Shown: piece by piece, positions 29,177 to 64,000 of the stretch
Position numbering within the stretch: the stretch's first letter is position 1
Layout: each line of letters opens with the position of its first letter
Source: Hirsutella rhossiliensis
Taxonomy: Eukaryota; Ascomycota; Sordariomycetes; Hypocreales; Ophiocordycipitaceae
Assembly: GCF_020360975.1 (NCBI RefSeq)
Contig: NW_025408670.1
Span: 310,001-374,000, forward strand
Reading direction: 5' to 3'
DNA: 64,000 bases
Notes under the pieces: model-generated
What the model was told of the DNA's origin: nothing
What the model saw: the letters and a program-made list of their open reading frames with translations, nothing else
The model's database searches: none
Made by a program: the position numbers and the translations under genes

Positions 29177-29565
29177 GATTGTGTAGAAAGGGGTGATGAC
29201 GTTGTTGTTGTCGTAGTTGTTTGACTTTATGTCCAGTAAATCGCACGTGGACCGCGGTAGGGCGCCATTCGGCTTATGGTGACGTCGTATAAATAGAAAC
29301 GGTTACAATGATGGGAAGGCATTTGCTAAAGCTCCCCCATGGTGCACCGCCTCATGATTGGTTCGGCTCGACTGCCCTTCCGGAGCATTACAGCCTGTTC
29401 CCCGACTTGTGACCCCTTGCGACTAAAACAGGGTCGTTTGACCCCCCGCCGCCTGTCTCCCTCGGCTGACCTGCCAGTATACCTACATAATGCACAAAGC
29501 CCGCCCCTCGTGCAGCGCGCTGCTGTTCGTCGCTCCCCACGCTTGTGCAGTGTTCCAGGCCGAGC
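29177..29565. promoter_or_regulatory. shared divergent promoter of SDR and Zn2Cys6 regulator
   Basis: 389 bases lie between the start codons of two divergent genes. I cannot point to a proven binding site. The arrangement alone suggests that the regulator may control the SDR. Confidence 0.45.
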
Positions 29566-34996: not shown

Positions 34997-37900
34997 TTAT
35001 CGGCTAAGCAGATTAACCAAATCCCCCAGCTTCGGCCTATCAAGAACGCTTTCCATATCAGGGTCGCCTATGCCATCTGCTTGCAGCTTTGTATATACGA
35101 CTGCTGCGGAAACAAGATCTCCCCCCAATTCAAAGAAATCGCTATCATCGTCCAGATTCAAAGCGATCCCCTGCGGTAGCTCGAGCACCTCCTGCCACGC
35201 AGCTACTACCGCTTTCTTGATTTCACTCCGCCGATCAAGCCCTGGCCAACTTCCATTCACCGTGTTGTTGCCATTGGTATAGCGCTCTGACGGAGCCGGC
35301 CCTATGCTCAACGGAAGCGCTTCGTCTCCTCTGCTAGCCATCGTCTTCAATAGTGCCCCGACCTTGGCTTCGGGCCCGGCGCAAATCGCTTGAAGAGTCT
35401 GACATAGGAAATCCACCAACAACCCCCCCAACTCCTCTCCCACGGCGCGATCCGAGCAGATCAGTAACACTTCCGTCGTTCCATCACCCTGCGGCGTGGT
35501 CTTGATCGCCACGTCCGCCTCGTCCGCTTGAGGACAGAAGAATCCGACCTCGTAGTCAACGCCGCGGACCGCCACATGACTCGCTTCCTCGATGTTCTGG
35601 TGTTGCACGATACTGCTGAAGCGCGTGTGCGGAGCCCATGGTGCACACTGACGGACAATGGTCCGAGTGCCGACAACAGCCTCGTAGAGCAGGCCGGCGG
35701 CGTGTTGGGCCTGTACGGCCTGCAGCAGCTGCGAGACGCTCAACTCTGGATCAGTAATCGCAACACGCACTGGCACAATGTTGATGCAGGCGCCGACGAC
35801 GGCAGAGATGCCCAAGTCGAGGTCGAGGGTACGACCGGAGACAACGTGGCCGAATGTGACATCGCATGTAGAGGTGAGGGAGGCAAGGACCAGAGACCAG
35901 GCTGCTTTGAGGATGGTAGCAAAGGTGGTGCCGCAATTCGCCAGCGAGGCCGTGGGGATAGTGCGGCGAAGGTAGGTGTTGTAGACGTTTTGGTGCGAAG
36001 GCTTGGTGTGCGCGACGAGTCTCGTCATGCTGGACCCCTTGAGAAGGGAGCCCCAGTACTGGAGCGCCTCGTCCTGGTCTTGTGAGGAGATGGCTCGCAT
36101 AAACGTCGACATGGGCTTTACAGGCGTGGGGTTAGGGCGACCCTCGAGCGCGGCGGCCAACGAGTCCCAGAGTTTCGGCAAGCTGATGCCATCGTACTGT
36201 GCATGTGAGATGCGTAGCACGATTCTATGGCGATTACCGGAAGCTTGGATGATGATAAACTTGAGCAGAGGATCCGTCAGCTTCGTGGGTAGGCTCATGT
36301 CCGATCTGCAAATCTGATCGGTGAAGTTGGCAATGTCGGTGCTAGTCAGGTGCTCCTCAACCTCGTAGCGGAGCTGCTTGAGCACAACCTGAACGATGTC
36401 GGCACGGTGCAGAGCGAAAACGGTGCGAAGAATCTCGTGCTCCGCCACAAACGCTCTCAATGCCTCGTGAGTGGCCGCCATGTCGAGGTGTCCCGTGCCG
36501 TCTAGCCACAGGTAGTTTCGAAGTCCGCGCGTCTTCATCAAAGCGTGGGCAACAGCATTTAGCTGAAAGTCGGTTGCGGGGAGAACATCTGCAATATTAG
36601 CCTCGGACGTCTTAATTTGAGAGGCCACTGCCCTGACAAGCTTGATTGGGTGTGTGCTGGTGATTAGAGACAATGGCTGATATCTTTGCGTGTCATTGGG
36701 CCTGACTGGTAATCGGCTCTCGAGCGCCTTGGCCATGTCGGACAGCACGGGGCTGTAGAAAAAGTCCCGGACATGGAGAGGGATCTGGTGCTCGCCAGCG
36801 GCAGCGACGAGCTTCATGGCAAGGATGGAATCGCCGCCAACGCGGAAGAACTGGTCTTGAGTGCCGATAGTCGGAGGGTCCACGCTCAGAGCCTGTGCCC
36901 ACAGGTCACGCAGGGCAAACTCCATGTCCGTTGCAGGCACTCGTTTTGTTGAGGACTCCAGCGTGAACTGGAGCATCCGTTTGTGACCAAGATTGGTTAC
37001 CAGATCTCGCAGTCGACGTCTATCCACTTTCCCGTTTGCCGTCAGTGGAACTTGGGCCATTGGGACGAACATGTTCGGTTGCATGTGGAATGGTAAGACC
37101 TCGGCAATCGAGGCTTGCAATTTCATGAGGTCCTCCTTGAGTTGGTCATCCAGGGGTAGTACCTCATCGGAGCCGCTACTCTTTGCCGTCACATGGAGGA
37201 ACGCAACCACGGCCTGTCTGCTGTCGAGGCTCACCGCATCGACGGTGACATGGGTCAGGCTGGGCATTTGGATGCGGATCGCGTGTTCGATTTCTCCAAG
37301 CTCGACTCGCTGGCCGCGAACTTTGACTTGGGTGTCTTTGCGGCCCACAAAGTGAATAGTTCCATCCTCATTGTAGCGGACCAAGTCGCCGGTGCGATAG
37401 AAACGGCGAGGCCGGCCCGGTGTACTTCCGTCTGCCCAGGCTGGATTATAGATGAATGTTTGAGCCGTCTTGTGCTTGTCGTGAAGATAGCCACGAGCCA
37501 CGGTGGGACCTTCAAGCAGCAGCTCGCCTGTGCAGCCGATGGGCACCAAGCGGTTATGGTCGTGAGCGTCAGCGACCCAGTACAGGGCGCCGATGGCTTC
37601 GCCGAGGTCGGCAGGGTCGCTTGTCGCAGTGGCGGGTGGCGCTCCGGAGCAGTACACGGAGCACTCGGCGGGCCCGTAACAGACAATCAGGTCCAAAGAA
37701 CGATGCCACTTGGCTATTGTGTCTTTGGTACTTGCCTCGCCGCCGAGAACCAGCTTCCGAAGACTCGGTATCCCATGCGCCGGCAAGAGCGAGGCCACAG
37801 TCGGGGTGAGGAACGCCCAGTTGCACCGAAATCGGTTGATGGAACCGGCCAGGTCGTTCAGCCGGTCGTGCTCAGAGGGAACGCAGATGCAACCCCCTCT

Positions 37901-40900
37901 CTGGAGAGTAGTAAAGATGTCGGCACAACTGACGTCGAACGTGTACGCCGCAAACTGGAGCAGGCGTGTTGAGGGACCTATGTCCCACGCAGTGCCGTGG
38001 GCTTGAGAGCTTGAGCACAGGTTGCGGTGCTCAACCACAATGCCCTTGGGGCGACCGGTGGATCCGCTGGTGAAGAGGACGTAGGCAGTAGACGACGGAT
38101 CAACCACTGGCAATGCAGTCCAGGATGGCTTGGTAAGACGGCGGTAGAACATCTTGTCGATGGCTACCAATCTTACGCCCTTGACGTCGCTGAACTTACT
38201 GTAGAGCTGAGACGCGACAAGTAGAACCTTGGCGCCGGTATCTTGGAGGATGAGCTCCTGGCGACTCATCGGATATGAAGGATCCAGATTGACGACGGCG
38301 CCACCTGCTTTCATGATGGACAACTGTGTCACGATAGCCCAGCGAGACTTTTCAAAGCAGACCGGAACCAGGATTTCGGGGCCGACACCTTGTTGCTCGA
38401 CGAGGTGTCGGGCACAATTGGTGGACAGCTGATCCAGTTCGGCGTATGTCAACTTGCCATCCCATGCATCTACAGCAAGGGCATCGGGTCTGCGGAGAAC
38501 TTGCTGCGCGAAGACTTCTGGTACCGTTGTCTCCAAGGCCTCTGGGTACGTCGAATTCCAGGCCAGGATTTGACTGAAGTCGTCCTTGGTGAGCATGGAT
38601 ATGTCTCGCATCTTGGTCGCTCCGGTTGCCTCGTTGAAACCGTGCAGGACGTGCTCGAAGTGTCTGAGTATCCGCTCGGTCTGGCTGCGAGAGATGACCG
38701 CTTCGTCGAAGCGTGCATTTAGGCGCACTTCGGTTTCGCCGAGGCTGCATTCCATGATCAAGGGGTATGTGTCGAAGCTATTGAGAGGCTTCGACACTTG
38801 CTCGGCACCAAGCAGCTCGGTGTGGTCAACGTGAAACTGCTTCATCGGCTGCACGACCAAGATGTTCTGAAATTTGACGGCTTGCGATGTGTCCTGGTTG
38901 ATGTTTGCGATGTTCTGCAGACCAAAGTGCTCAAAGCGCATCATCTCTGTCGCTTGTTGCTGGACCGCCTTGAGAAAGTCAACCACGGTGCCCTTGGCCG
39001 GTACGCTGACTCGGACGGGCACGGTAGTGATCGTAGGGCCCACGATGGTGTCGATGCCCTGGACAGGGCAATTGCGTCCCGAGAGGGTCATCCCAAATAG
39101 GACATCGTCTGCGTCTGAGTGTTGAGCGAGGACATAGGCCCAAGCGCTTCTCAAAACTGTCGCCATCGGAACCTCTGAGCCCGGCTGGCGGCTGATCGGG
39201 ACGCTGTGATGGACTTCCTGATCGACCCGTGGTGGATGGGACGATGATGGTGGCTCGGGGAATGTGACAGCCTTTCCTGCTGAAAGCTGGGATTCCCAGA
39301 AGCCTCGAGCCTCGTCTGTGCTCAAGGTCGAGACATGTTGGACGAAGCGGTTGAAGCCTGGCGTCGCCGGGGCGGTGCCGGAGGCGTAATATGAAGTAAC
39401 CTGTTCGAGAATCAAAGGTACTGTCCAGCCGTCGTACATGGAGTGATGTGCGGTCCAGATGAAGTAGCCGTCGTCGGTCATGGCATAGCGGGAGAGTGGT
39501 TTGCCAAAGGCCATCTCGTCCTTCTCGTCGTCTTCCATGTACTGCCGCAGAGTAGCAGCTTCTCTCCACTTGAAACAATCTTTGAGCACGACCTGAACCG
39601 CGCGCCCGGCTTTGGTCTGAATGATGGTCGTTCGCAAGACGGGGTTGTTGTCAATCGTCTTCTCCCAAGCGGCCTTGAAGCGTGCCATGTCGATCGAGTT
39701 GGGAAGCTTGAAGGCCTTGTGCGCCGTATATGCCCCAGGATACAGCATCGAGAGCGCCATGAGACTTTCCTGGAGAGGCGTGCATGGGTAGGCATCGGCG
39801 ACTTGGTTCTCGGACACGTTGCACTTGGCAGCGAATGACGGGCGCGCGTCTTTGACGGAAAGGGTGGATTTCAGAAGCTCAAAGGGCTTCACGTCGACCA
39901 TGGTGTTGGCGGTTGATGCATCTTTGGCTGCTACGACGGCCATGTCCGAGAGCGTCGCATGGCGAAAAATGTCCGAGACGGTGAGAGAAATGCCTGACGT
40001 GAGTTTAGCTGCGAGCTTCATGGCGGCTATGGAGTCGCCGCCCATGCGGAAGAAATTGTCGTGCCGCCCAATGCGCGAGACGGGCAACTTGAGCACCTCG
40101 GACCATAGTAGGGCGAGTCTTGTTTCAGTCGCAGTCACCAACGGCTTCCTCGATTCTTGAACGGGCGAGAACGTGCCGAGGTCCTCTTCCGACATGCTAG
40201 CAACCGCGTCACGAAGCGCCTTGCGGTCGAGTTTGCCGGCTGCTGTGGTAGGCATCTTTCCCACGGGGATATATAGCGACGGCACCTCGTAGGGGGGAAG
40301 CAGCGTCCCAAGGATCCCTTGAAGTCGAGCGACGTCGCCACGTAAAGCATCGGTCAGAGGCAGCAGCATCTGGCTCTGTTCCGGTTGATTGGCATGGCGG
40401 AAAAAAGTAGCAACAGTTGCCCTCTCCTTTTCAGCCAGCGGAAACACCACTTCGACGCTGACTTGAGACGCCTGGGGGAAGCTGGATTTGACATGATACT
40501 CGATCTCGGACAACTCGATTCTCTGGCCTCTCAGCTTGACTTGTTGGTCCTTTCGGCCGAGGTAGGTTATCGTGCCATCGGAATTGTAGCGAGCCAAGTC
40601 GCCGGTATTGTATACCCTCTGGGGCCAGTCCTGGAAGCCTTTGAGAAAGGCTGGATTGTCGATGAAGACACTATTTGTCCTGGCCTTGTCATGCAGGTAG
40701 CCTCGAGCAAGGGACGGACCCGATAAATGGAGCATGCCCACGGCACCGATAGGGGCAAGCTGAGTGGCGTCTTGAAGACTCACGATCCAGGGCTGAGATC
40801 CAACGCCTCTGCCTAGGACATCATGACCGTCTCGCGGATCCTCAAACGTCTTCATCAGGGCGAAGACGCAAGTCTCGGTGGGCCCATAGCCATTCATGAG

Positions 40901-43900
40901 CCTGACCTTGCCCGTCCAGGTCGCGATATTGTCCTGCCCAAGTGCCTCGCCACCAAGGACCAAAGTCTTCAGGGTAGGAACCTGGTCTGGCGCGAGGATG
41001 CGCACAAGCGACGGCGTCATGAAGGCCGTGTTGACCCGCTTCCGGACCATGAAGCCGGCAATGTCACTCATCCTCTCCTCGTCGGATGGGACGCAAACGC
41101 ACCCTCCGTGGGCCAGCGTTGTGAATATCTCGAATATGCACGCGTCAAAGGTATAGGTGGCGAACTGGTACATGCGCGTCGCCGGACTGCATCCTATCTC
41201 GGCGCCATGATGAAGAGTGCTGCTGCTGACGGCAAGGTGTGTGAGCACGACGCCCTTGGGCAGACCGGTCGATCCGGACGTGAACAGAACATAGGCCACA
41301 TTCGCTGGTGAGACCGGAGGCTTGGCCGGTGTGATTGATGAGCTTGACCGTTCCGATGGCCGTGAAGACAGGGTTAGGACATTGTCGACCAAGGTCTGTA
41401 TCCGTTGAGCTGTTGTCTCTGATGCAAGGACAAGACAACTGGCCGTCTGTGAGATGATTGCTCTGAGCCTATCGTCGGGATGCGCGGGGTCCAGGGGCAC
41501 GAATCCCGCCCCGGCCTTCATGATGCCGAGCATGGCCACGATGGCCCAAGCACTCTTTTCGAAAGAAATGGGCACCAGTGAATCGACTTGGATGCCCAAG
41601 GCGACCAATTCATGTGCAAGCTGCGTGGCCTCGGTGTCCAACTCGCCGTACGTCATTGAACCCTCGGACGAGTCAATGGCAACAGCATCAGGGCACTTAT
41701 TGGCATTGTCGGCAAAGATTTCATGTACACACTTGTTGATTGGGGCCCAGGGCTCGGCGTTCCAGAGCGCGATCTGCTTTGCGTCTCGCGTGCCGTAGAG
41801 GTTGAGATGTCCGACCTGGGCATGGGGTGTTTCCACAATCGAAGCCAAGACGTTCGACAGTGCGCTTGCAACGTTTGAGGCCTGACGGTCGCAGAGCTGG
41901 TCCGTAACATAGCTCATGTGCACGTGAATACCATCTTGGCTGTCAGAAATGCTCACTGACGCGCTGTACTCTGTGGGATCAACACCATCCAAGTGACGAA
42001 GACGAAGGTCGCCGATGCTCAAGTCGCCGTGAGAGCGCCTCTGAAAACTAAGGACGGTGTTGAACAGCGTTTGGCCAGCCAGGCCTAGCTCGTGCTGTAT
42101 CTGTGCGAGGCCAACATGTTGATACGGGAGCGACTTGAGGTACTGTTCCTGAAACATGACCAAGCTGTCGTCTACCTTGTGCCGGCTGATGTGGCCCAAG
42201 TCGACGGAGCAAACGAGCATGTTAATAAAAGCTCCAATAGCGCCTTCAATGCCTGGGACAGGAACCTCTCGGCCAGACGCCAGGTAGCCAAAGCACACAT
42301 GATCGTCGCCAACGAAAGCCCCCAGGACCTTTGCCCAAGCCAGCCGGAAGATGCTGGCCAGCGTGACATTGTTCTCTTGACAAAAGCTGCGCATTCTGGC
42401 AGCGCTTGGGACTTCAATCTCCACTTCATGGAACAGGCGCTCTGGCGCCAGCTCTCCGTCAGTAAGAGTTGGTAGGTGGCATGGTCTGACATTGGCAAGA
42501 TAGCTTTTCCAGTGGTCTATGGCATCGTCCCTGGGCCGAGAGTGAATGTAAGCAATGTAATCGCTGTACACGGGGCTGGGAAGGGCCGCAGATTTGTCCC
42601 GATACGCATCAATCCATTCCGAGACTAGGATGGACGTCGAGGTTCCGTCGACGAGCGCATGGCTGATTTCGAGTTTGCAAACCACCCGCCCGGACAGTGT
42701 GTGGAGCAGAGTCATGCAGTGGGGAGGCTGAGCCAAGGCGTAGTCCAAAGCCTTGGCTTTCTGGAGATGAGAAACGGCTTGTTCAGGCTGATTCTCCCGT
42801 ACAACCATCTCTGCCGTGTGCTTCTTGAGCACCAGTTGATCATATGGCCGGTCAGAGAGGTTCTGGACGAACACCGTCCTCAGTGTGGCATGGCGATCGA
42901 CGACCGTCTGCCACGCTTTTGCCAGTTTCGGAACATCAATGGCCTGTCCATGGGTCGAAGAAACTTCAACCACCATCTCCACGTTGTAGGCACCTTGGAT
43001 GCGGTTCTGGCTGAGCAAAATGCCCTCCTGCATCGGCGAACAGGGCAACATGTCTTCCACATCGTCGACGGCTGCAACGGCAACCAAGACGTCGTTCTGA
43101 AACCTCTCAAGTATCTCATTGGTCGTGGAAAGAAGCGGGAAATCGCCAGGAGTCAGCATCGGATCCGCTATCTTCAATTCATGCCCCATGTCAACCAATG
43201 TCCGCGCGTAGGAAGTCGCCCACCGCTCCATGAGAACCGCGTGCTTCATATTACGGTTGTAGGTGAGGGTGAAGTGTGCCGCGCCTTCAAGGACGTACGC
43301 GTTGATCTCCATCAGGGCAAAACGGCTGACCTGGGGGCCCACGTCACCCTCGTTGAACGGCTGGGGATGGAAGAGACTGTCGGATTGAGCCTGGCCCTGG
43401 TAGACTCCGTGATAGTTGAACAAGATCTCGACCGGCCAATGCCCTTTAAAGGCCGTCTTCCCCTCATCATTCGACAGCGCCGAGTTGAAGTAAGCCCACC
43501 CACTGCGCGGCAGACATCTTCTCTGATCCTTCAGCCGACGAACAGTATCAAGCATGCTCATTCCTGCTCTAGGCGAGACTTGGAGCGGAAACATGGTCGT
43601 GAACCAGCCGACAGTCTCGGTAATGTCCATTTGTGAGTCCCACGGCTCTCGTCCGTGGCCTTCGTTGAAGATTGCTGGCGGAGGACGCGAGAATGTGGCG
43701 GCGAAGGAGAAGAAGGCCGCGGCCAGGAAGACATCCAGGGCCTCAGTCTTCATTGATCGGTGACATCCACGCAGCAACAAGTCGGTGTCTTTTTGGTTGA
43801 TTGCGAAGCTGAGCTCAGCCGTGTCGCCTCGCAAGTTGGGTTTGTTCTCCATGCCCCAGTAGCCGTAGTCGGCGTCAGGAACCTGGTGCGGGAGCGAAGT

Positions 43901-46900
43901 TTGAGGGCGGAGATGGCGACTGCCGTAATCGGCTTGGGCCTTTACCCAGGAATGAAATGGAAATGGCTTGGTACCAGGCAGTTGGTTTCCCAAAGTCAAA
44001 ATGTCTTCCATTTGCCTGATAATGGTCCTCCATGACACCAGGTCAACCACGAGATGATGAGCAACCACAAACAGGAGTTGATGTGATGCATCCGAGACGT
44101 TGAAAAGCTCTACCCCAAACACTGGCCCGTTGCGGATATCCATCTGCTCCTGGGCCTTCTTCGCAATGAAAAGAGCATCCTCGCGCGATTTGACGTCATG
44201 AGTCCCAATGCGATAGCTTCCGGCGATCTGAGAGAGGACCATCTGCGACCATACGCCATCCCTGCTCTGCAGGAAGCGGGCACGAAGCATTGGATGATGT
44301 TCGACGACCTGCTGAACCGCCCTGGCTATCGCCGCAGGACTTTGCCTTGTCTTGACCCCAAGTAGAAAACTCTGGTTAAACTGGTTCACCTGGGCATCGA
44401 GCGAGCCTTTGGTCAGCTCTGAGAAGTACATAGATTGGATTGGTGAGAGTGGAAAGGGGGCATCCAAGAGTTCTTCTTGTCGAGGCTCGCGCGACGCCAC
44501 AGTCTTGACCGTCAGCGCGAGCGAAGAAATAGTCTTGCTCCGCATAATGTCCTTGACCGCCAGCTTGATGCCCTGCTTTCGGCATTGCACCACGAGATGC
44601 ATGGCCAGAATTGAATCGCCACCCAGGTTCAAAAAGGACTTGTTGCGGCGGACTTGATCGAGTGGGACATTGAGCACGGCGGAGATGATTTGCTGGAGAC
44701 GCTTCTCGTCCGGCACGACAGTCGCCTCGGCGGGTTGCTCCTCACCGATGTCGAGAGCATCGGAGTAGTCGTCGTTGGAAAGGTCCTGGACCCAGCGACT
44801 TACTCTCACGCGGTCCATCTTCCTGGACGCGGTCAAGGGGAAAGCTTCAAGTAGGAGCCACACGCTGGGTACCATGTATCCCGGGACAAGACTTCGGAGC
44901 TGCTCTCTGACCTGTGCGACTTGCGCTGCAGCCTTGATCTTGGAGGGCTTGTCAGTGATAGTGCAAGGCTCCTGCAAGGCCATCGTCTTCTCTGAGAATT
45001 CCGAAGGTGCAACAACCGCGACTAGCTGGCGCCTGCAGGGGCCACTCTTTGGCATTAGGACAACGGCGTAGCGTACGAGATGATGCGACACAATGTGTCT
45101 TTCAATCTCACTCGTCTCGATACGCTGACCATTTAGCTTGACCTGGCCATCGGCTCGGCCAACGTAGATCAAGGTCCCATCGTCGTGGTATCTGACAAGG
45201 TCGCCAGACCGATACATGCGACATGTCGTCGCAGTAGAGCCACGCCAACGAGGGGGAGCGATGAATGCCTGGGCCGTCTTTTCTGCATCCAGATAACCGC
45301 GTGCGAGAATTGGCCCTTCGATCAGGAGCTCGCCAATCGCCCCGACCGGGGCCAACTTGCCGACGTCTGCGGTATCGGCAACCCAAAGGAGGCATCCGTC
45401 GCCACCATAGCCCCTACTGATTGTTGCAGGCGATCTTCCACGGCCAAGAATGGCCATTGAGGTCCAAATGGTACACTCGGCAGGACCATACGAGTTGATC
45501 AACTGCACGTCGTCTTTCCACGTCTTCACAATGTCGTCGGGGACCCGCTCTCCACACAGAGCCAGTGTCGTCAACTTAGGCACGTCTGCTGGCGTCATCG
45601 AGCTCGCCACCGATGGCGTGAGAAACGTCCAGTTGACTTCAAGGCGTTTCATTGCCCCGGCCAGATCATTGAGCCGCTCGTGCTCCGACGGAATGCACAC
45701 GCTGCCTCCACAAGTCAGGGGGCCAAAGATTTCCGAGTTGGATGTGTCGAAGACGTATGCTGCAAACTGGCAGACACGGGATTGGGGTCCCATTCCCATT
45801 TCCGGGTTGTGGCTCATGACAGAAGTAAAGGAACTGTGCGTCAGGCAGATGGCTTTGGGCCTCCCCGTCGATCCCGAGGTAAAGCTGATAAAGGCCGCAT
45901 TGTCGGGCGTACATATCTCCGCTGGCGGCTGTTCTCGGACAGGCAGCTTGTCCAGCAAGGCCTGATCAACAACCACGACGAGCTGGACAGCCTTACTCAA
46001 CTTGTTGGCGTACTGGGCGGCACTGGTGAGAACTAGTTTGGCCTGCGTTTGCTCAATGATGTTTGCTAGATGCTTGGCAGGGCTGGAGGGATCCATGGAC
46101 GTATACGCTCCGCCAGCACGAAGTATAGCCAGCATGGCAACAACAGTCCATTTGGACTTGTCAAAGCAAAGGGGAACTATCACCTCCGAGGTCACTCCCA
46201 GGTGCCTCAAATGGTGAGCGAGGCAACGAGAAGCCTCGTCGAGCTCGCCATATGTCAGGACACCATCCCAAGAGGCGACTGCTGTGGCGCCAGGCCGGTC
46301 AAGCGCATGGCGAGCAAAGTTGTGGTGGATGAGCTGATGCACCTTCTGGGGGGTAATGCCGTTCTTATTCCAGGCAAAGATCTTGCGTCTGTCGGAATCA
46401 CAGAGGAAATCCAGCTCGGCTAGTGTCGCTGCCGGCTTATCAAGCATCTGATTCAGGATCTGAGACAATGTCGATGCCACCTGACTTCCTTGTTCGGCGG
46501 AAAGAAACGACGACCAGAAGCAGATGGAAGCTTCAATGGCAGAGTCGCTCGCAGTGATGCTTACGCTAAGGTCGTATTCGGTCGGGTCCCTTCCTTGGAG
46601 GTAGTTGATGCCGATGTCACTCTCCGGCCCGGTGTCCTCTGATAACGGTCGCTGCAAGGAGAGAATTGTGTTGAAGAGGCGGCCACTGGTCAGATTGAGG
46701 CTGTGCTGGATCTCCGCCAGTGGTTGGTGCTGATGGGGTAACGCGTCCAGGTAGTCTCTTTGTGTCTTGCGGATTGCATCGAGCACACAGATGTTGTTGG
46801 ATGCATCCACGCGGCAGACGAGCATGTTGATATACGGCCCTACAGCCTCCTCGATGCCCGTCAAAGAGATGTCACGACCTGAAGCCATGAAGCCCAACAG

Positions 46901-54659: not shown

Positions 54660-56322
54660 TTACTCCTTGGACCCTGTGATGTGATCGGCCAGTGGAAACT
54701 CTCCGGGCAGGCCCCAGCCCTTCAATGTCTTGTTCTCATCGGCAATAAAAAAGTCGAGCGTGAACATTGCATATGCAATGGTCAAGTTGAGCTCTATCAG
54801 GGCCATTCCTCTGCCGACGCAGCTGCGCGTACCAACAGAAAAGGGGCAAAAGGCCGTTCGAGCAACTTCGGGGCTTATCCCCATAGCACCGGCTTCGCCG
54901 GGCAGCCAGCGCTCGGGTCGGTACTCGAAGGGCGCCGGGAAGTACCGGGGATTGTGATGAATGGCATAGATTGGCACACCAGCCTGCATGCCCGCGGGTA
55001 GCGTCTGGCCGTCGACAGTGGCGCCGCCGGCCTGTACTTCGCGATACAATGATGATCCTGCCGGCGGAGACATACGCAGGGCTTCGTCAATGCACGCTCG
55101 AAGATATGTGAGCTTGCTCAACTTTGGTCCAGTCTGAATCTCGTCTGCAGTAGCAAAGGCAGAGCGAACATCATCCCGGAGTCGTTTGTAGGCGTGAGGC
55201 GTGCTGGCAAGGTAGAAGAAGACGGCGGCTAACGCCGTCGAAGACGTGTCGGCTCCTGCGACACTCAGCGTGGTGCTCTCGGCCAGGATCTCCTTGGATG
55301 TCAGTCCATCGCCGCTGACGGGGTCACGCGCCGACGTGAGGGCCGAAACAACTGTGCGCGCCTTGACGTCGAATTCTGCCTTCATGACACGCTTGACAAG
55401 GCCACCGACAAAGTAAAGAAATTGGTTGCGCGCCTCTATGGCCTTGGGGAACAGCCACCGATCGACCCGGCCAATCTGGCGGAGGAAGGGGCTCTGCAAC
55501 AAGACGCTGACGCGGACGTTGGACTGCTCAATGGCGTTTGGTATGCGTCGATTGGTCGGTGACCCGAGCAGATCGTAGCGGATGCCGAAGACAACGTCGC
55601 CCATGATGTCAAACGTCAGCCAGTTGAACCAGTTGGACATGTTGCAAGGCGGTGTCCAGCCATGCTCTCGGCCCTGGGTCGATCGCTGTGGCTGCTGGAC
55701 TGGGCCCTCTGCCTGAGCGGTCACCAATGCGAAGCACTTCTTGATGTGCGCCATCAGCGTTGGCTCATGAGACCGAAGGGCGGCATCCGACAAGCCCTGC
55801 GAGACGATGCGACGCCGGCGAGCATGCTCTTGCGTGTTTATCATGGTCAACGTGTTCGCCGCGCCATGGCGGAGGACGCGGTAGTTTGGGCTCTTTTGGA
55901 AATTCACGGTCCCCGAGTATATGTCCTTGAGTGCACCAGCTGTGTTGATGTTGAGCTTGTCTGGCGCGTACCGAACGTATGGTCCTGCACTTGGTGTCAG
56001 CCATGCTGTGCATACTTGGCCCTTTGAAGATGCAGACCATAGCGTTCGTGTTGCCTCCACATATCGACGTGAATATCACCCTTCCAGGCATGATAGGCCG
56101 CGTAAAAGTCCGTCACTCTGGCCAAGAATGGCCCAGGGTATTTGGAGAGCGGGTGAAAGTACAGACGCCGGATGCATAGAGCCACGACCTGTGAGCAGCG
56201 TCAACATGTCTCTACCTCTGGGCCGGAAGTTGGGGGCCGCCTACTAGAATGACACCCAGCATCAGCGATATAGATGCCAGCCGGAGAATGGCAGACATTG
56301 CCAGGACCATCGTCTTCATCAT
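54660..56322 (-). CDS. cytochrome P450 monooxygenase
   Basis: A membrane-anchored heme monooxygenase of roughly 500 residues in three exons. The start at 56322 ([20 protein letters not shown]) begins an N-terminal hydrophobic anchor interrupted by an intron. Exon 2 has [14 protein letters not shown], the usual Pro-rich hinge. A second intron (about 56030-55981) joins QHERYG to [11 protein letters not shown]. Then come the I-helix [10 protein letters not shown], the K-helix EALR, RPERWL and the heme loop [12 protein letters not shown] with its Cys ligand. All are intact. It lies between the NRPS (same strand) and the FAS alpha gene (divergent). In related FAS-NRPS clusters a P450 oxidises the fatty acid or the finished peptide. 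Here either is possible. Alpha-hydroxylation of the FAS product on the way to an amino fatty acid is my inference. Confidence 0.92.
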
Positions 56323-56829: not shown

Positions 56830-59800
56830 ATGAGGCTGCACCAGGCCACTTCCGACGCCGACGTGCCATCTCGGAGAGACGACCAAGTCGCCCGCACACT
56901 TCTCATAGAGCTTCTGGCTCATCAGTTTTGTTTCCCCGTGCAATGGATCGACACCCAACACTTGATACTGGGCTCCAGGCCAACAGAGCGCATCGTCGAG
57001 ATGGGGCCCGGCAACACTCTTGTCAACATGGCCAAGCGAACAATAGCACGCGAGTACGCGCCGCGAGATACTGCCCAAAACGTCTCGCGACAGTTGCTGA
57101 GCTTCCAGCACAACCTTGACAAGATATGCTACGACCAAAAGCTGGAATCGCCCGAGATTGAGCCCACGACTGTGGCAGCGACTCCTGCGCCTGCAGACCC
57201 TGTGGCCGCTGCCCCCCTTCAGTCCTCGGCCGCTCCGCTGTTTGCTGCTGCTCCAGTTGAAATCCAAGACAAGCCGGCCAGTGCCATCGAGGTTGCCTCG
57301 ACCATCATCTGTGTTGGCTTGAAGAAGCCGCTAGATGGAATCGACCTGGCCAAGTCGATCAAGGCGCTTTCTGGAGGCCGCTCGACGGTGCAAAACGAGA
57401 TCATCGGAGACCTTGCGGCTGAATTCGGTGCAATACCAGAGGCCGCAGAGGACATGCCCATTGACCAGCTCTGCTCCATCTTACAAGAGACGTTTCTTGG
57501 AAAGCTGGGCGCAAAGTCGTTATCCTTGATCGACAAAATGATGTCGCAAAAGTCCCCTGGAACATTTCAGGATGCTGGCATCCGAAAACACCTGAGGCAG
57601 CGATGGGGCTTCGGGCCTGGCCGCCAAGACACCATCTTGCTCTGGGCGGTGACCTCGCAACCACAGTCTAGGCTCCAGAATGAAGACGACACCAAGGCCT
57701 TTGTCAACGGCATTGTACACAGGTATACCAACAAGACAGGTCTTGTTCTGCCTGATGTATCAGGCTCGACGGCCCCCGCTGCGGCACAAGTAACCGTCAG
57801 CGCCGAAGCCCTTGAGTTTCTGGAAGATAGGCACAAGACCGTCTTGGAGGAGCAGCTCGGGCTCTATGCAAAGCTGCTCGGACTCGATCTCCACGCTCCC
57901 GAGGCTGCGCATGCGGCTCTTGGCCAGCGCATATCAGAGCTGCAAGGCCGGTTGGACGAGTGGAACGCCGAACACGGGGAAGCCTACGCATCTGGCTTGC
58001 AGGCCATCTTCACGCCGCTCAAGGCTCGCGTCTACGACTCATGGTGGAACTGGGCAATGCAAGATCTCCTGGAACTCGTCTCGATGGCGGCTTCTGCTCA
58101 TACGGGCGACCCGGACCCGGCCTTTGACCGCTTGAGACGTAATGTGCTGCAAAAAACCCATCCAAGGCTACTATCGACAATGCGGCATTGCGCTGCCACG
58201 ACCCTGAATAACAGTGTCGCCAAAGTGCTACGCGAGCTACTACCGGAATGCGAGGCGTCCATGGACAAGAAACCAGTGGTTTACCGGGGCATCCAGTCTA
58301 TGGCCCCCGTGACCATCGTCGAAAGGTCTGGCAAGGTCGTGTATAGCGAGAGGCCGAGATCAACGCCTCGAGGCGCGCTTGACAATGATGACCAACTGCT
58401 CAGACTCGGCCGCAAAAGCATCCATGGTTGGGACTACAGTCATGGGCTTTCGTCCGTATTGCACCGTGTCCTGGCCGGTGCCAGAACGACAGGGATCTCC
58501 TTGTGCGAATGCAATGTGCTCGTAACAGGGGCGGGGGCAGGCTCGATTGGCTGCGAACTCGTCTCCAAACTGCTCGCGGCTGGTGCCCACGTCGTCGTCA
58601 CCAGCAGTTCCTACTCACCCAAAGTCACCCGCTTCTACCAGAGCCTGTTTGCTGAGCACGGTAGCAAGGGCTCCAAGCTCGTGCTGGTTCCTTTCAACCA
58701 AGGAAGCGTCCGTGATATCGAGGCTTTGTTGCAGTACATATACGACCAAGACGGTCTAGGTATGGATCTCGACTACGTGGTTCCTTTCGCCGCCATCTCG
58801 GAGAACGGGCGAGCCTTGGACAACATCGACTCACGCAGTGAGCTTGCTCACCGCATCATGCTCACAAACACCATACGCTTGATGGGGAAAATAAAGCAGC
58901 AGAAACAAGCCCGCGGAATTACTATGCGACCAGCCCAGGTGATTCTTCCCCTGTCGCCCAATCACGGAACTTTCGGCAGCGACGGTCTCTACGCAGAGTC
59001 AAAGCTCGGCCTTGAAGCACTCTTTGAAAAGTTTCACTCAGAAGACTGGGCCGAGTACCTGCTCGTGTGTGGTGCGCTCATAGGCTGGACGCGAGGAACT
59101 GCGTTGATGTGTGATAACGACATGGTGTCCGAGGGCATTGAAGAAATGGGCGTGCGGACGTACACTCAGGATGAGATGGCGCTCCATGTCATGGCATTGA
59201 TGGACCCAGCCATCGTCACCTTGTGTACTGATGAGCCGCTGCTTGCTGACTTGAGCGGTGGCATGGCTCGTGTTGCCGATTTGAAACATGTCACCATGGG
59301 AATACGAGACTCCATCAACCAACTGAGCGAGGAGAGGCGCGCAACGACACAAGAGGCCGAGTTCGTCGGCTGTCGGATGAACCTTGAAGCCCAGCTTGAA
59401 CCTCAAGCCGATCTGGAGCTCAAATTTCCAGGTCTGCCTGACTGGAATACCGACATCATGCCGCTCGCTGGACAACTACAAGGCATGGTTGATCTTGATC
59501 GCGTCGTCGTCGTCACGGGCTTTGGAGAAGTTGGGCCGTGGGGCAACTCGCGAATCCGATGGGACATGGAGTTGAACGGGTCCCTGTCGTTAGAGTCGTG
59601 TATCGAGCTGGCGTGGACCATGGGCTTGATCAAGTCACACTCGGGCACCATCGACGGACAAGCGTATTCCGGTTGGATTGACAAAGAGACGGGCAAGCCC
59701 ATCCCCGACCGGGCGATTCGGGACAAGTACGAGAGTCATATGCTCAAACATTCCGGAATTCGCTATGCGGAGCCCAAGCAAAACTCGCCGTCTTGGAAGG

Positions 59801-61629
59801 GTCTGGAAGCACTCCATGAAGTCGAGATTTCGAGAGACCACGACCCCGTCGAGGTCAGCAACGAAACCGCAATCCAACTCAAGGCAGCTCATGGCGACAA
59901 TCTGCATATTGAGGCGACACAAGATACTGGCCGGTCCAGGATCGTGCTCAAAAAGGGGGCAAAAATCATGATACCCAAGCTCCTCAACACCCAACACACA
60001 GTCGCTGGACAGGTCCCTTTGGGCTGGAACCCGAGTACTTACGGGATCCCCGAAGATATCATCGCTCAGGTCGACCCGGTGACACTGTATGCATTAGTCG
60101 CTGCTGCCGAAGCCTTTCTGACTGCAGGAATCTCGGATCCGTATGAGCTTTACGACTATTTACACATGAGTGACGTGGCGAATTGCGTCGGCTCGGGCTT
60201 TGGAGGCATATCTAGCATGCGCAACATGTTCAAGGAGCGATTTCGAGACCGACCGGCGGCAAGTGACACGCTTGCCGAGTCTTTCATCAGCTCCGGCAGT
60301 GCCTGGATCAACATGTTGCTCCTGTCAGCTGCCGGCGCCAACAAGACACCTGTTGGGGCGTGTGCCACTGCCCTCGAGTCTTTGGACACGGCCTTTGACT
60401 TGATCCAGGCGGGTAAAGCCAAGGTCTGCTTGGTGGGCGGCTTCGACGACATGCTCAAGGAGATTTCGAACGAGTTTGCCAACCTCAGGGCGACAGTCGA
60501 CGCAGACGAGGATGCCGCAAGAGGCCGAGAACCGGCAGAGATGAGTCGGCCCGCAACCTCAACACGCGACGGCTTCGTCGAGTCAGAAGGTGCAGGAGTT
60601 CAAATTGTTACATCGGCGAGCGTTGCCCTCCAGATGGGCCTGCCTATTCATTGCGTCGTTGCATTGACGCGCACAGCCATGGATAAAGCCGGTCGATCCA
60701 TTCCTGCCCCTGGCCGGGGACTCATAGGCGCAGCCGCCCAGAAGCAGGCCAAGTATGACTCGCCGCTGATGAGCATGGCGTACCGTAGGCGGGCACTGAG
60801 ACTAAGAATGCAGCAAGCCGCCGAGATGCGCGAGCTGCACCTGTCATACATGGATGACGACATTGCTCAGCTGAAGAGGCAGGGTTACGTTTTCGACGAC
60901 GGCGAGTATCGCCAACAGCGCCTGGCCAGTATCGAGAACGACGCCAAGCGAGACCACAAGGAGTCTCTCAATTTATATGGCAATCAGTTTTGGTACCACG
61001 ACAGCCGCATTTCACCGATTCGTGGGGCCCTTGCCGTCTGGGGGCTGACGGTAGATGACATCGACGTCGTTTCCTTTCATGGCACATCGACGAAAGCAAA
61101 TGAGAGAAACGAAGCAGCCGTAATCAACGAGCAATTCAAACATCTTGGTCGCAAGAAGGGCAATGTCGTGCCCGTCGTGTGTCAAAAGTCGCTTACCGGC
61201 CACCCCAAGGGAGCTGCTGGAGCTTGGATGCTAGACGGCTGCATGCAGCTTATGCACGATGAACGGATTCCGGGCAATCGCAACGCCGATAACATCGAGG
61301 CCGCGTTGCAAGAATACGATTACCTCGTGTTTCCCAACAAGCCCATCAACAAGACGGAGATCAGGGCCTTTATGACGCAATCATTTGGCTTTGGCCAGAA
61401 AGGCGCCCTGGCTATCGGGGTGAATCCCAAGTATCTCTACGCGACAATGCAGCAGCATGAGTTTGCGGCATATAGGCAGAAACTCGGGTTGCGCCAAAGA
61501 AGGGCGACCCGGGACTTCCAGAAGCGTCTATTCAACAATAGTGTGTTTCAAGCAAAGGAGAAGACTCCCTACGCAGCAGGCGAGGCCGTCCGGACTCTTC
61601 TGGATCCAGAGGCAAGGTTTGTATCCTAG
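56830..61629 (+). CDS. secondary-metabolism fatty acid synthase alpha subunit
   Basis: A 1599-residue, intronless FAS alpha subunit. Order: a short malonyl/palmitoyl-transferase segment at the N-terminus (WIDTQHLILGSRPTERIVEM), an acyl carrier with the phosphopantetheine Ser185 in SGGRSTVQNE, a ketoreductase with VTGAGAGSIG and catalytic Tyr721 in LYAESK, and a ketosynthase with Cys1178 in VGACATALES, His1417 in FHGTSTKANERNEA and His1458 in LTGHPKGAAGA. The protein stops soon after the ketosynthase (LLDPEARFVS), where primary-metabolism alpha subunits continue into a phosphopantetheinyl transferase domain. Length and order resemble pathway-specific alpha subunits such as those of the sterigmatocystin and aspercryptin clusters. 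With the beta subunit downstream it should make a short or medium saturated acyl chain for the NRPS product. Confidence 0.95.
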   Translation: MRLHQATSDADVPSRRDDQVARTLLIELLAHQFCFPVQWIDTQHLILGSRPTERIVEMGPGNTLVNMAKRTIAREYAPRDTAQNVSRQLLSFQHNLDKICYDQKLESPEIEPTTVAATPAPADPVAAAPLQSSAAPLFAAAPVEIQDKPASAIEVASTIICVGLKKPLDGIDLAKSIKALSGGRSTVQNEIIGDLAAEFGAIPEAAEDMPIDQLCSILQETFLGKLGAKSLSLIDKMMSQKSPGTFQDAGIRKHLRQRWGFGPGRQDTILLWAVTSQPQSRLQNEDDTKAFVNGIVHRYTNKTGLVLPDVSGSTAPAAAQVTVSAEALEFLEDRHKTVLEEQLGLYAKLLGLDLHAPEAAHAALGQRISELQGRLDEWNAEHGEAYASGLQAIFTPLKARVYDSWWNWAMQDLLELVSMAASAHTGDPDPAFDRLRRNVLQKTHPRLLSTMRHCAATTLNNSVAKVLRELLPECEASMDKKPVVYRGIQSMAPVTIVERSGKVVYSERPRSTPRGALDNDDQLLRLGRKSIHGWDYSHGLSSVLHRVLAGARTTGISLCECNVLVTGAGAGSIGCELVSKLLAAGAHVVVTSSSYSPKVTRFYQSLFAEHGSKGSKLVLVPFNQGSVRDIEALLQYIYDQDGLGMDLDYVVPFAAISENGRALDNIDSRSELAHRIMLTNTIRLMGKIKQQKQARGITMRPAQVILPLSPNHGTFGSDGLYAESKLGLEALFEKFHSEDWAEYLLVCGALIGWTRGTALMCDNDMVSEGIEEMGVRTYTQDEMALHVMALMDPAIVTLCTDEPLLADLSGGMARVADLKHVTMGIRDSINQLSEERRATTQEAEFVGCRMNLEAQLEPQADLELKFPGLPDWNTDIMPLAGQLQGMVDLDRVVVVTGFGEVGPWGNSRIRWDMELNGSLSLESCIELAWTMGLIKSHSGTIDGQAYSGWIDKETGKPIPDRAIRDKYESHMLKHSGIRYAEPKQNSPSWKGLEALHEVEISRDHDPVEVSNETAIQLKAAHGDNLHIEATQDTGRSRIVLKKGAKIMIPKLLNTQHTVAGQVPLGWNPSTYGIPEDIIAQVDPVTLYALVAAAEAFLTAGISDPYELYDYLHMSDVANCVGSGFGGISSMRNMFKERFRDRPAASDTLAESFISSGSAWINMLLLSAAGANKTPVGACATALESLDTAFDLIQAGKAKVCLVGGFDDMLKEISNEFANLRATVDADEDAARGREPAEMSRPATSTRDGFVESEGAGVQIVTSASVALQMGLPIHCVVALTRTAMDKAGRSIPAPGRGLIGAAAQKQAKYDSPLMSMAYRRRALRLRMQQAAEMRELHLSYMDDDIAQLKRQGYVFDDGEYRQQRLASIENDAKRDHKESLNLYGNQFWYHDSRISPIRGALAVWGLTVDDIDVVSFHGTSTKANERNEAAVINEQFKHLGRKKGNVVPVVCQKSLTGHPKGAAGAWMLDGCMQLMHDERIPGNRNADNIEAALQEYDYLVFPNKPINKTEIRAFMTQSFGFGQKGALAIGVNPKYLYATMQQHEFAAYRQKLGLRQRRATRDFQKRLFNNSVFQAKEKTPYAAGEAVRTLLDPEARFVS

Positions 61630-62922
61630 TTTATTCATTCTAGAGGACAGGTGTGTCTTGGAGACTCTCGCGAAGGGTTGGCATGGTCACATTAGATAGT
61701 AAACACGAATAAGCGGGCCTTGCATCTCTCCAGACCGTGTCATCAGCCAATTCCTGGCTCTTACCAGTTCCGTCTTTGCTTAATCTCGGGCCGATAAATA
61801 TCGACACATTAGGACCATGACTGTTACACCATCCCACCAGCACGGATCGGCCAACTTTCGCAGATAGACGGAGGCCAAATGAGGGTTTACATCCGTGACT
61901 GCAACTGACATGTACAGTAGCCAGGCAGGACAGTATATCACTACAGCGACCCCTACAGTGTCCGCATCGTGATTGGGCGAGCATCGGAAGGATCTGTCCG
62001 GCTACTGCAGAAACCGCAATCGTGTGCGTTCGGCCACCTCCATGCGTAAGCGGCATGACCTGACCAGTTGACCACCATCTACAGATGGTCGCTAAATAGC
62101 GCACATGTATAGACTTGCATGTGAATCTCCATCTCCATCTTACACACTAGGCAAGGGTCACTGAAGGATGAAGGAGTCGGCGTCGCAACGCTGCGCTATA
62201 TACGGAGTATATCGACCAACTATTATTGGTCCCCGGATATCTCGTATCGTGCGGTGTTTCGAAAGCTTCTACGCAAAACCTACCCTATACTAGCCTATTT
62301 TCTCAAAATAGAAATATTAAGAACTTATTACCAACGTCTTCCGGTCCTATCTTACGTCAAGTACTTTTTCTTCATATAAGACCTAAGCTGGATATAGAAA
62401 CCGCGTGCTGAGATAAGAGCAGAGCTCATTGCATACACACATGCTCCCATTTACACAGAAACCCTGCTGATAACACGATGGGTTGTATGGATTAGGAATG
62501 CTCACGCTTACATGTGCCCACCCTACCCCCGCCCCGCCCCTGGTCCCCGGCCCCCGGCGCGGGGCCGAAGTGGTGGGGAAGGCCTCAAGTTCCGACATTC
62601 CAAAGTTCCTCCCCGGACGTCGATTGGCTGAAGGCGTCCATACTCCCTTTGGCCTGTAAGCTTCTAGAAGCTAGGCCAGCCTTGTTAGTACATCCACCAT
62701 CATATCCGTTGTGGGCGTCTATTCCACCCTGATCTTGCCCCTGCCTTGGACCTACGGTTCCAGGTTGTGTATATCAGCCAGTATTGGCTTTCCGTGCAGC
62801 TTGTGTATGCCTTTGTTGACCAACCGAAAAGTCTGCTGATTATACCATTGTATCGGGGTCCCGCTCTTTCCAAACCACTTTACTGGGACATTGACACACA
62901 GCTGGCTCCCAGACCAGCCTTG
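61630..62922. other. FAS alpha-beta intergenic region
   Basis: 1.3 kb lies between two genes in the same direction. Part (about 62270-62400) is AT-rich. It is followed by a C-rich tract (62526-62555) that forms a G-quadruplex motif on the minus strand. I see no further gene. Confidence 0.45.
62526..62555 (-). promoter_or_regulatory. G-quadruplex motif upstream of FAS beta
   Basis: On the minus strand five runs of four or five G are separated by loops of 2, 4, 1 and 1 bases (plus-strand C runs at 62526-62530, 62532-62535, 62537-62540, 62545-62548 and 62551-62555). It lies about 370 bases before the FAS beta start. Short loops and long runs make folding likely. A regulatory role is not shown. 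Confidence 0.6.
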
Positions 62923-64000
62923 ATGACCGTCAACATGTACGCAGGAGCGTCCAGGCCGTCAACAAAATCGGAAACGGCTTCGTTGGCAGAGCAAACGGCA
63001 AAGGCCTACGCCGTCTTTGGCGGCCAGGGCAACACGACGGATTATTTCGGAGAGCTCCGGACTCTATTCAGGACGTATACACGCTTTGTTGAGCCTCTTT
63101 TCATCACGGCGGAACAGGCTTTGCACAATCTGCTGGCCGACACCTCTGCTACCCGGCGGAGACAATTCCACCAAGGCCTGGCGATTCTAACATGGCTTCG
63201 CCGGCCCGAAACGACGCCAGAACTAAGTTATCTCCTCTCGGCGCCAGTCAGCTTTCCCTTGATCGGCCTCATCCAGTTTTCAAACTATGCAGTCGTCTGT
63301 CGCTGTCGGGAGAAGTCGCCCGGAGAGGCCGCACATCAACTGCTCGGCATGGCCGGACACAGTCAAGGAATCGTCGTTGCCGCAGCCCTGGCGACGGTGA
63401 CGACGTGGAAAAGCTTCGATACTGCTCTTGTCAAAGCATTGACCGTGTTGTTCCATGTCGGATCTGCTGCGCAGGAGGCAACTCCGCACGTCAGCGTTCC
63501 ACCAGTCATTTCAAAAGAAGCAATGTGCAACGGCGAGGGCTACCCTTCATCAATGCTGAATGTCGTCGGCTGCCGTCTTGACATGCTCAAGGAATACATG
63601 AACGAGGTGAACAAGAACCTACAAATGCATCAACGCGTCTTCATAGGCCTCATCAACGGCCAGACCAACTATGTCGTCTCGGGGCCAGTGCTCTCGCTTT
63701 GCGCTCTCGCGTCGATGCTACGTCGGGTCAAGGCGGCTTCTGACGCAGACCAATCCAATATTGCCTTCTCGTCGCGCAAGCCCGAGTTTTCGCAGCGATT
63801 CCTGCCGGTCGAGGCACCTTTCCATACGGCGCATCTTAAAGATGCGGCGACCCGGGCCCTCGGAGAGCTTTGCACACTACATCTCGCTGCATCCGAGCTC
63901 ATGTTGCCCGTCTATCACAGTCGCCACGGAGGAGACCTCAGGAGCAGCGGTGCGAGAGACGTCGTCCCTGCCTTGGTGCGAATGATTCTTTGCGAGTTGG
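62923..64000 (+). CDS. fatty acid synthase beta subunit, 5' part
   Basis: A frame opens at ATG 62923 and stays open to the window edge (359 codons), so the gene is partial here. The acetyltransferase domain is visible: AVFGGQGNTTDYFGELRTLF, then SFPLIGLIQFSNY and the nucleophile elbow GMAGHSQG with Ser147, followed by FIGLINGQTNYVVSG and RFLPVEAPFHTAHL. This is the starter-loading domain at the head of fungal beta subunits, and enoyl reductase, dehydratase and malonyl/palmitoyl transferase domains should follow outside the window. The N-terminus is short: the same Ser in yeast Fas1 is near residue 274. Either the real start lies in an unseen upstream exon or this is a compact form. It pairs with the alpha subunit in the same direction. 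Confidence 0.9.
   Translation, partial: MTVNMYAGASRPSTKSETASLAEQTAKAYAVFGGQGNTTDYFGELRTLFRTYTRFVEPLFITAEQALHNLLADTSATRRRQFHQGLAILTWLRRPETTPELSYLLSAPVSFPLIGLIQFSNYAVVCRCREKSPGEAAHQLLGMAGHSQGIVVAAALATVTTWKSFDTALVKALTVLFHVGSAAQEATPHVSVPPVISKEAMCNGEGYPSSMLNVVGCRLDMLKEYMNEVNKNLQMHQRVFIGLINGQTNYVVSGPVLSLCALASMLRRVKAASDADQSNIAFSSRKPEFSQRFLPVEAPFHTAHLKDAATRALGELCTLHLAASELMLPVYHSRHGGDLRSSGARDVVPALVRMILCEL

What the first reader, a model, noticed from the sequence alone, without database searches (positions are those of the whole stretch)
34997..64000. NRPS-P450-FAS alpha/beta cluster for a pentapeptide with a FAS-derived residue
Seen: a five-module NRPS, a P450 and both subunits of a dedicated type I FAS lie together. 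Known: apicidin/HC-toxin and aspercryptin pathways use a dedicated FAS to supply an alpha-amino fatty acid to an NRPS. Inferred: this cluster does the same for a five-residue, probably cyclic peptide. The domain order C*-A-T-C-A-T-C-A-T-E-C-A-T-C-A-T-C-T is not one I recognise from a known compound. No aminotransferase, needed to make the amino acid, is in the window; it may lie beyond 64 kb.
Basis: partly seen in the sequence, partly recalled or inferred. Interest (0 to 1): 0.88.

Follow-up and report, generated by a model that had tools for sequence, protein, structure and literature searches.

The report
Fungal lipid-amino-acid cyclic pentapeptide gene cluster

Summary
Confirmed and extended. 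The window is from Hirsutella rhossiliensis. The core is NRPS, P450, FAS alpha, FAS beta; the predicted missing aminotransferase (BCAT type) lies 5.0-6.2 kb past the window end, beside FAS beta. The NRPS has five modules, E after module 3, a cyclising-type last C, and a last T without its serine (GGDL), as in 14 of 14 relatives checked. FAS alpha belongs to a PPT-less clade and has Phe at the KS chain-length gate, seen in 0 of 87 housekeeping rows. The NRPS belongs to an uncharacterised family named NRPS8 in Aspergillus. Between lineages with and without a close FAS alpha, only module 3 shows fixed pocket-code differences (2 of 9 positions; 0 of 36 elsewhere), but this is one evolutionary event. 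NRPS and FAS alpha have matching histories (identity r = 0.99) and both place Hirsutella inside the Chaetothyriales grade, suggesting joint transfer. Best reading: a cyclic pentapeptide with a FAS-derived 2-amino fatty acid, most likely residue 3 in D form. The chemistry is inferred. New variant of the HC-toxin/apicidin/aspercryptin kind.

The parts
34997..53599 (-). Five-module NRPS, about 6200 aa from Met 102: N-terminal remnant, A1-T1, C2-A2-T2, C3-A3-T3-E, C4-A4-T4, C5-A5-T5, last C, last T
   Evidence: family relatives 42-62% identical over the 521 residues searched, 56-64% over full length for five species
45464..45748 (-). Module 3 A-domain pocket region (code DTSFACSIW); the only module with fixed code differences between the two NRPS lineages
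43193..44452 (-). Epimerisation domain after module 3 (HHLVVDLVSW)
35582..36511 (-). Last condensation-type domain with SHAQYDG, presumed cyclising release domain
   Evidence: role of the motif in destruxin synthetase as stated in PMC13036780 (passage)
35114..35125 (-). GGDL in the last T domain: the phosphopantetheine serine is missing; same in 14 of 14 relatives checked
54660..56240 (-). Cytochrome P450 (main exon 54660-56075 plus 5' exon)
56830..61629 (+). Dedicated FAS alpha subunit (ACP, KR, KS), no PPT domain, Phe at the position of yeast M1251
62923..64000 (+). Dedicated FAS beta subunit, 5' part (SAT/AT with GHSQG); the gene continues to C4:378916 (window coordinate 68916) with further FAS beta domains and GHSLG
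   Evidence: The BCAT gene, also part of the cluster, lies wholly outside the window at C4:379042-380176
28135..29049 (-). Short-chain dehydrogenase exon, possible accessory gene (membership untested)
29442..31629 (+). Zn2Cys6 / Fungal_trans_2 transcription factor, possible cluster regulator (membership untested; exon limits not determined)

Best explanation
The cluster NRPS-P450-FASalpha-FASbeta-BCAT makes a cyclic pentapeptide with one FAS-derived 2-amino fatty acid. Proposed steps, all inferred from sequence: (1) the dedicated alpha/beta FAS makes a short or medium chain, since its KS channel is gated by Phe; it has no PPT domain, so its ACP must be activated in trans. (2) The chain becomes a 2-oxo acid by oxidation, the P450 being a candidate for part of this or for later tailoring. 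(3) The BCAT-type transaminase converts it to a 2-amino acid. (4) One module, most likely module 3, loads it and the following E domain makes it D. (5) Modules 1, 2, 4 and 5 add four residues of a scaffold conserved across ascomycetes. (6) The last C domain releases the peptide as a ring; the last T domain, lacking its serine, is not a carrier. The genes and motifs are shown. The chemistry is not.
For: Five genes follow each other. The BCAT aligns along its length with solved BCATs, the lysine of HAKVGGNYA falling on a lysine (that this is the PLP lysine is recalled); its best named relatives are Metarhizium at 79-81%, one named AtnJ after the aspercryptin enzyme. FAS alpha lies in a PPT-less clade (23 of 39 rows, SH-aLRT 99). 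KS gate: Phe in 14 of 23 of that clade, 1 of 8 other PPT-less rows, 0 of 87 housekeeping rows; enlarging the yeast gate (G1250S-M1251W) raised C6 and C8 output (PMC5353594 passages). NRPS and FAS alpha relatives share a contig in Capronia and Cyphellophora (locus numbers 03025 and 03027 in the latter), and NRPS and BCAT in an ENA 42-kb contig and in Sclerophora. Pairwise identities of NRPS and FAS alpha over six species correlate at r = 0.99. Fixed differences at pocket-code positions: 2 of 9 in module 3, 0 of 36 in the other four. Precedent: TOXC/TOXF/TOXH for HC-toxin (PMC3729494), Apf4/Apf5 for apicidin F (PMC10967133), AtnH/AtnJ for aspercryptin (PMC8262921), passages only.
Against: No chemistry or expression data. 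The pocket switch is one change on the NRPS tree, so its match with FAS is one evolutionary event. Module 3 does not have the most fixed differences overall: core counts are A1 5, A2 2, A3 4, A4 3, A5 0, whole-domain counts 17, 7, 13, 4, 4; and its A domain is the fastest evolving also within each lineage. Module 2 (Y at 331 in Pleosporales) and module 4 (Hirsutella alone) also vary. Contig sharing was seen for only 4 of 16 W-type NRPS rows, against 0 of 15 M-type rows; Exophiala, Pyrenophora and Parastagonospora rows showed none. FAS alpha relatives in Pleosporales might belong to TOX2-like clusters (PMC3554632 passages). The FAS alpha clade also holds a group (Trichoderma, Rhexocercosporidium, Phlyctema and others) with no NRPS of this family in the listed rows. 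The Sclerophora BCAT is from another BCAT subgroup. Metarhizium has close FAS alpha and BCAT, but no Metarhizium NRPS is in the 120 of 687 rows listed.
Confidence: 0.7

Rival explanations
1. The FAS supplies a fatty acyl chain that is attached to the peptide N-terminus (a lipopeptide) instead of an amino fatty acid inside the ring.
For: A dedicated FAS next to an NRPS.
Against: The N-terminal remnant before A1 shows no HHxxxDG; the BCAT beside FAS beta has no role in this reading; no acyl-CoA ligase match among the neighbouring ORFs that I scanned, which were a selection.
Confidence: 0.1
2. The NRPS is simply an NRPS8 orthologue making the same peptide as in Aspergillus; the FAS and BCAT belong to a different neighbouring pathway.
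For: Pocket codes of modules 1, 4 and 5 are nearly the same in all rows aligned; Metarhizium has close FAS alpha and BCAT without a listed NRPS of this family.
Against: NRPS-FAS alpha linkage in Hirsutella, Capronia and Cyphellophora, matched histories and the module 3 code difference.
Confidence: 0.15
3. It is an orthologue of the HC-toxin/apicidin pathway making a tetrapeptide HDAC inhibitor.
For: Same kinds of genes: FAS, BCAT, P450, NRPS with one E domain; some relatives bear the name HC-toxin synthetase in the sources.
Against: Five modules instead of four and E after module 3 instead of module 1; no ToxE-type regulator among the ORFs scanned, a Zn2Cys6 factor instead.
Confidence: 0.03

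Closest known systems
Aspergillus NRPS8 (pes3, AFUA_5G12730) family, product uncharacterised
   Same: Five modules, nearly the same pocket codes in modules 1, 2, 4, 5, E after module 3, SHAQYDG in the last C, GGDL in the last T. The name NRPS8 is on P0036 and P0041; nrps8 = pes3, uncharacterised, in PMC6737921 (passage). The A. fumigatus protein itself was not examined.
   Different: Module 3 pocket is W-type (DTSFACSIW) instead of M-type; the PPT-less FAS alpha clade holds no row named Aspergillus, Penicillium or dermatophyte among the 120 of 238 rows listed.
HC-toxin TOX2 cluster (HTS1, TOXC, TOXF, TOXH)
   Same: FAS subunits and a BCAT thought to supply a 2-amino decanoic-type residue to an NRPS (PMC3729494 passages).
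   Different: HTS1 has four modules with E between modules 1 and 2; the Hirsutella NRPS has five with E after module 3.
Apicidin / apicidin F clusters (APS/APF)
   Same: Aminotransferase, FAS and P450s with an NRPS (PMC10967133 passages).
   Different: Four-residue product; the apicidin cluster holds a FAS alpha but no beta gene (PMC3729494), Hirsutella has both.
Aspercryptin (atn) cluster
   Same: Two BCAT-type enzymes thought to make 2-amino fatty acids (PMC8262921 passages).
   Different: Linear lipopeptide from a larger NRPS (recalled).
MbjA cyclopeptides of Penicillium expansum
   Same: Five A domains and a five-residue ring (PMC13036780).
   Different: No E domain; a Pip-containing depsipeptide without a fatty amino acid.

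Membership tests
NRPS8/Pes3-type five-module NRPS family | Five A domains with the shared pocket codes outside module 3 | tested here: met
   29 rows chosen from the 120 listed: M1 DVLFVGG[IV]A in 24 of 25 with letters; M4 DALFIGGVF in 28 of 29 (the exception is Hirsutella itself, DAFFVGGVF); M5 DVAFVGC[VI]Y in 27 of 27
NRPS8/Pes3-type five-module NRPS family | E after module 3, SHAQYDG last C, serine-less last T | tested here: met
   Present in the query; among 14 relatives GGDL 14, SHAQYDG 14, E motif 13 by the pattern used
HC-toxin/apicidin (TOX2) type | Four-module NRPS with E between modules 1 and 2 | tested here: not met
   Five modules, E after module 3; definition from PMC3729494 (passage)
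HC-toxin/apicidin (TOX2) type | FAS plus BCAT for the 2-amino fatty acid | tested here: met
   FAS alpha, FAS beta and BCAT adjacent
HC-toxin/apicidin (TOX2) type | ToxE-type bZIP-ankyrin regulator in the cluster | tested here: inconclusive
   Zn2Cys6 factor at 29442-31629 instead; only a selection of ORFs was scanned
Aspercryptin (atn) type | Larger NRPS releasing a linear lipopeptide | tested here: not met
   Five modules and a SHAQYDG last C domain; the atn details are recalled
MbjA cyclopeptide type | Five modules without an E domain | tested here: not met
   E domain present; MbjA lacks one (PMC13036780 section 8)
Dedicated fungal FAS of secondary metabolism | FAS alpha without PPT domain, outside the housekeeping clade | tested here: met
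   ACP Ser and KS Cys kept

The most novel reading that the evidence does not exclude
One conserved cyclic pentapeptide scaffold runs through several ascomycete classes, and its third, D-configured position was switched once between an unknown residue and a FAS-derived 2-amino fatty acid, together with gain or loss of a FAS-plus-transaminase cassette. That whole cassette, NRPS included, then moved horizontally from Chaetothyriales-like black yeasts into a nematode-parasitic Hypocreales fungus and into Pleosporales.
Probability: 0.35. Interest if true: 0.75.

Novelty: new variant of a known kind. Interest (0 to 1): 0.6.

Why it matters
It makes an uncharacterised NRPS family, whose Aspergillus member is listed without a product (PMC6737921), testable: which residue differs (module 3), where it may come from (FAS plus BCAT) and in which genomes. 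The cluster has both dedicated FAS subunits beside the NRPS, as the C. carbonum TOX2 locus does but the apicidin cluster and the TOX2-like clusters of two Pleosporales do not (PMC3729494). Cyclic peptides with 2-amino fatty acids include HDAC inhibitors (same source), so the product of a nematode parasite is of practical interest. The matching NRPS and FAS histories make it a good case for studying transfer of a whole pathway between fungal classes.

Tried and rejected
Orthology with HC-toxin/apicidin: rejected on module count and E position. Orthology with MbjA, a characterised five-residue cyclopeptide NRPS: rejected, no E domain there. Reading the substrate of each A domain from its code: not attempted, because no reference code set was at hand; codes were read at GrsA positions that I recalled. 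Cluster extent to the right: past the BCAT lie a gag-pre-integrase fragment, an RTA1-like gene, an ABC transporter, MFS pieces, a thioesterase-like ORF, an APH-like ORF and a retroelement; membership could not be tested. A separate housekeeping FAS alpha in this genome was not established: the genome search did not complete. That Capronia and Exophiala are Chaetothyriales is recalled; only Cyphellophora was looked up.

Rows dropped: the contig comparison used 33 of the 120 FAS alpha rows (those without PF01648). The KS count left out P0125 (copy of the query), P0148 (fragment) and P0231 (sits among housekeeping rows). The NRPS tree left out six near-duplicate Pyrenophora rows; the tree tests used 15 and 17 chosen rows.

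Papers: seen as passages only: PMC5711037, PMC6737921, PMC3554632, PMC5353594, PMC3729494, PMC10967133, PMC8262921, PMC3538342, PMC4255773; of PMC13036780 the abstract, passages and section 8. The pes3 deletion paper was not held. No description of this cluster was found in searches; these cover open-licence papers only, list at most 20 rows each, and of most rows I saw the listing alone. A Pyrenophora NRPS of unknown function with a Parastagonospora homologue (PTRG_09101) is mentioned in PMC3538342 and may be the same family; not tested.
Full report
What is there. The window is G000:C4:310001-374000 of an 81.8-Mb genome in 40 contigs. The NRPS is 100% identical, over the 521 residues compared, to a Hirsutella rhossiliensis protein; the fungus is a nematode parasite of the Hypocreales. 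The cluster core reads: NRPS 34997-53599 (-), P450 54660 to about 56240 (-), FAS alpha 56830-61629 (+), FAS beta from 62923 (+) to C4:378916, BCAT-type aminotransferase C4:379042-380176 (-). Most of FAS beta and the whole BCAT lie outside the window. Its two exons (892 and 194 bases by the sequence) add up to the 361 aa of the public protein P0245, which aligns along its length with solved branched-chain aminotransferases.

NRPS anatomy. Five A domains, five T domains with GGDS, E (HHLVVDLVSW) after module 3, a last C with SHAQYDG and a last T. The N-terminal remnant shows no HHxxxDG. The last T has GGDL, so no serine for phosphopantetheine. Among 14 relatives examined, GGDL is present in 14, SHAQYDG in 14, and the E motif in 13 by the pattern used. 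SHAQYDG is the motif held responsible for cyclisation in destruxin synthetase according to PMC13036780 (passage). The public model of this gene (5934 aa, P0005) is shorter than the open frame in the DNA.

Family. Relatives at 42-62% over the searched region occur in Capronia, Cyphellophora, Exophiala, Pyrenophora, Parastagonospora, Aspergillus, Penicillium and dermatophytes; over full length Hirsutella is 56-64% identical to five of them. Two rows carry the name NRPS8, and nrps8 = pes3 is listed as uncharacterised in PMC6737921. In 29 aligned rows the codes of modules 1, 4 and 5 are almost invariant; module 2 has Y for W at one position in the Pleosporales rows. Module 3 falls into two states: W-type, DTSF[AS][GC]S[IV]W, with DVSFAGSVW in Sclerophora (14 rows), and M-type, ending in M or once K (15 rows). 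Comparing 10 W-type and 15 M-type rows, fixed differences (no shared letter, at most two letters per group) fall on 2 of 9 code positions in module 3 and 0 of 36 in the others. Against this: counted over the whole A core the fixed differences are A1 5, A2 2, A3 4, A4 3, A5 0, so module 3 stands out by where they fall, not by their number; and its A core is also the most variable within each group (mean identity 0.745 and 0.702, against 0.81-0.88 for the others).

FAS and BCAT. FAS alpha falls in a clade of 23 PPT-less enzymes (39 rows, SH-aLRT 99); rows with a PPT domain are 49-54% identical over 67-73% of the query. The residue at the place of yeast KS M1251, a chain-length gate (PMC5353594 passages), is F in 14 of these 23, L in 8, I in 1; in 8 other PPT-less rows F occurs once; in 87 housekeeping rows it is I 68, M 11, V 6, L 2. 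F itself was not a mutant in the passages I saw. The KS cysteine is kept in all 23 and the ACP serine in 22, the other having a gap there; FAS beta keeps GHSQG and GHSLG. The best named BCAT relatives are Metarhizium 79-81%, then Exophiala viscosa 67%; in the BCAT tree Hirsutella and Metarhizium fall in one subgroup with Exophiala and the ENA sequence.

Linkage. As a proxy for lying on one contig I compared longest-contig lengths among 120 NRPS rows, the 33 PPT-less of 120 FAS alpha rows, and 120 BCAT rows. NRPS-FAS alpha matches: Capronia and Cyphellophora (locus numbers 03025 and 03027 in the latter). NRPS-BCAT: five, of which the ENA 42-kb contig and Sclerophora are of this NRPS family and three belong to other NRPSs. 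FAS alpha-BCAT: six, one being Hirsutella itself. Within this NRPS family 4 of 16 W-type rows and 0 of 15 M-type rows had a match; the Exophiala, Pyrenophora and Parastagonospora NRPS rows had none.

History. NRPS and FAS alpha pairwise identities over six species correlate at r = 0.988 (15 pairs, not independent). In the NRPS trees the order is Capronia plus Exophiala, then Cyphellophora, then Hirsutella with Pleosporales (in one search the ENA pair is unplaced). The careful FAS alpha tree gives the same order, with the Trichoderma-Rhexocercosporidium group added near Pleosporales at weak support (83/82); the quick one leaves Cyphellophora, Hypocreales and Pleosporales unresolved. Holding the three named Chaetothyriales together is rejected in both (AU p 2.3e-6 and 6.7e-7), though the group was named after the first trees were seen. 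Joint horizontal transfer out of Chaetothyriales is the simplest reading; ancient duplication with losses is not excluded. The pocket switch is one change on the tree; its direction is unknown.

Mechanism. Shown: genes, domains, motifs, conservation. Inferred: chain length, 2-oxo acid formation, transamination, loading by module 3, epimerisation, cyclisation. The closest precedents are HC-toxin, apicidin F and aspercryptin (passages), which are thought to obtain their amino fatty acid the same way but use other NRPSs. The cluster therefore works like them without being an orthologue of any of them. I put 0.7 on an amino fatty acid-containing pentapeptide and about 0.45 on module 3 as its site. 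Metarhizium, which has close FAS alpha and BCAT but no listed NRPS of this family, is unexplained.

Noticed in passing
L010 3720-4367 (C4:383720-384367) and L012 5464-7877 (C4:405464-407877): Retroelement pieces right of the cluster: a gag-pre-integrase fragment, then reverse transcriptase, RNase H and integrase matches. Observed only.
   Followed up: no
L010 7736-8602; L011 467-4684, 5564-7463 and 8390-8989: An RTA1-like gene, an ABC transporter, MFS pieces and a thioesterase-like ORF 7.6-18.8 kb past the BCAT; cluster membership untested.
   Followed up: no
window 28135-31629: Short-chain dehydrogenase and a Zn2Cys6 transcription factor left of the NRPS, beyond a 3.4-kb stretch without ORFs of 160 aa; possible oxidoreductase and regulator of the cluster.
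   Followed up: partly
tables (P0126, P0127, P0246, P0247): Metarhizium has close FAS alpha (69%) and BCAT (79-81%), yet no Metarhizium NRPS appears in the 120 of 687 NRPS rows listed; the FAS-BCAT pair may serve another NRPS there.
   Followed up: no
P0229 (Parastagonospora nodorum, 1671 aa): A second PPT-less FAS alpha outside the main clade that also has Phe at the KS gate.
   Followed up: no
G000, many contigs: 79 condensation-domain matches genome-wide, so the species is rich in NRPS genes; open frames of 5658 and 4764 aa on C2 and 4542 aa on C15 look like further large NRPSs.
   Followed up: no
window 9662-12085: Single-frame aconitase-family gene of about 807 aa, left of the cluster.
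   Followed up: no
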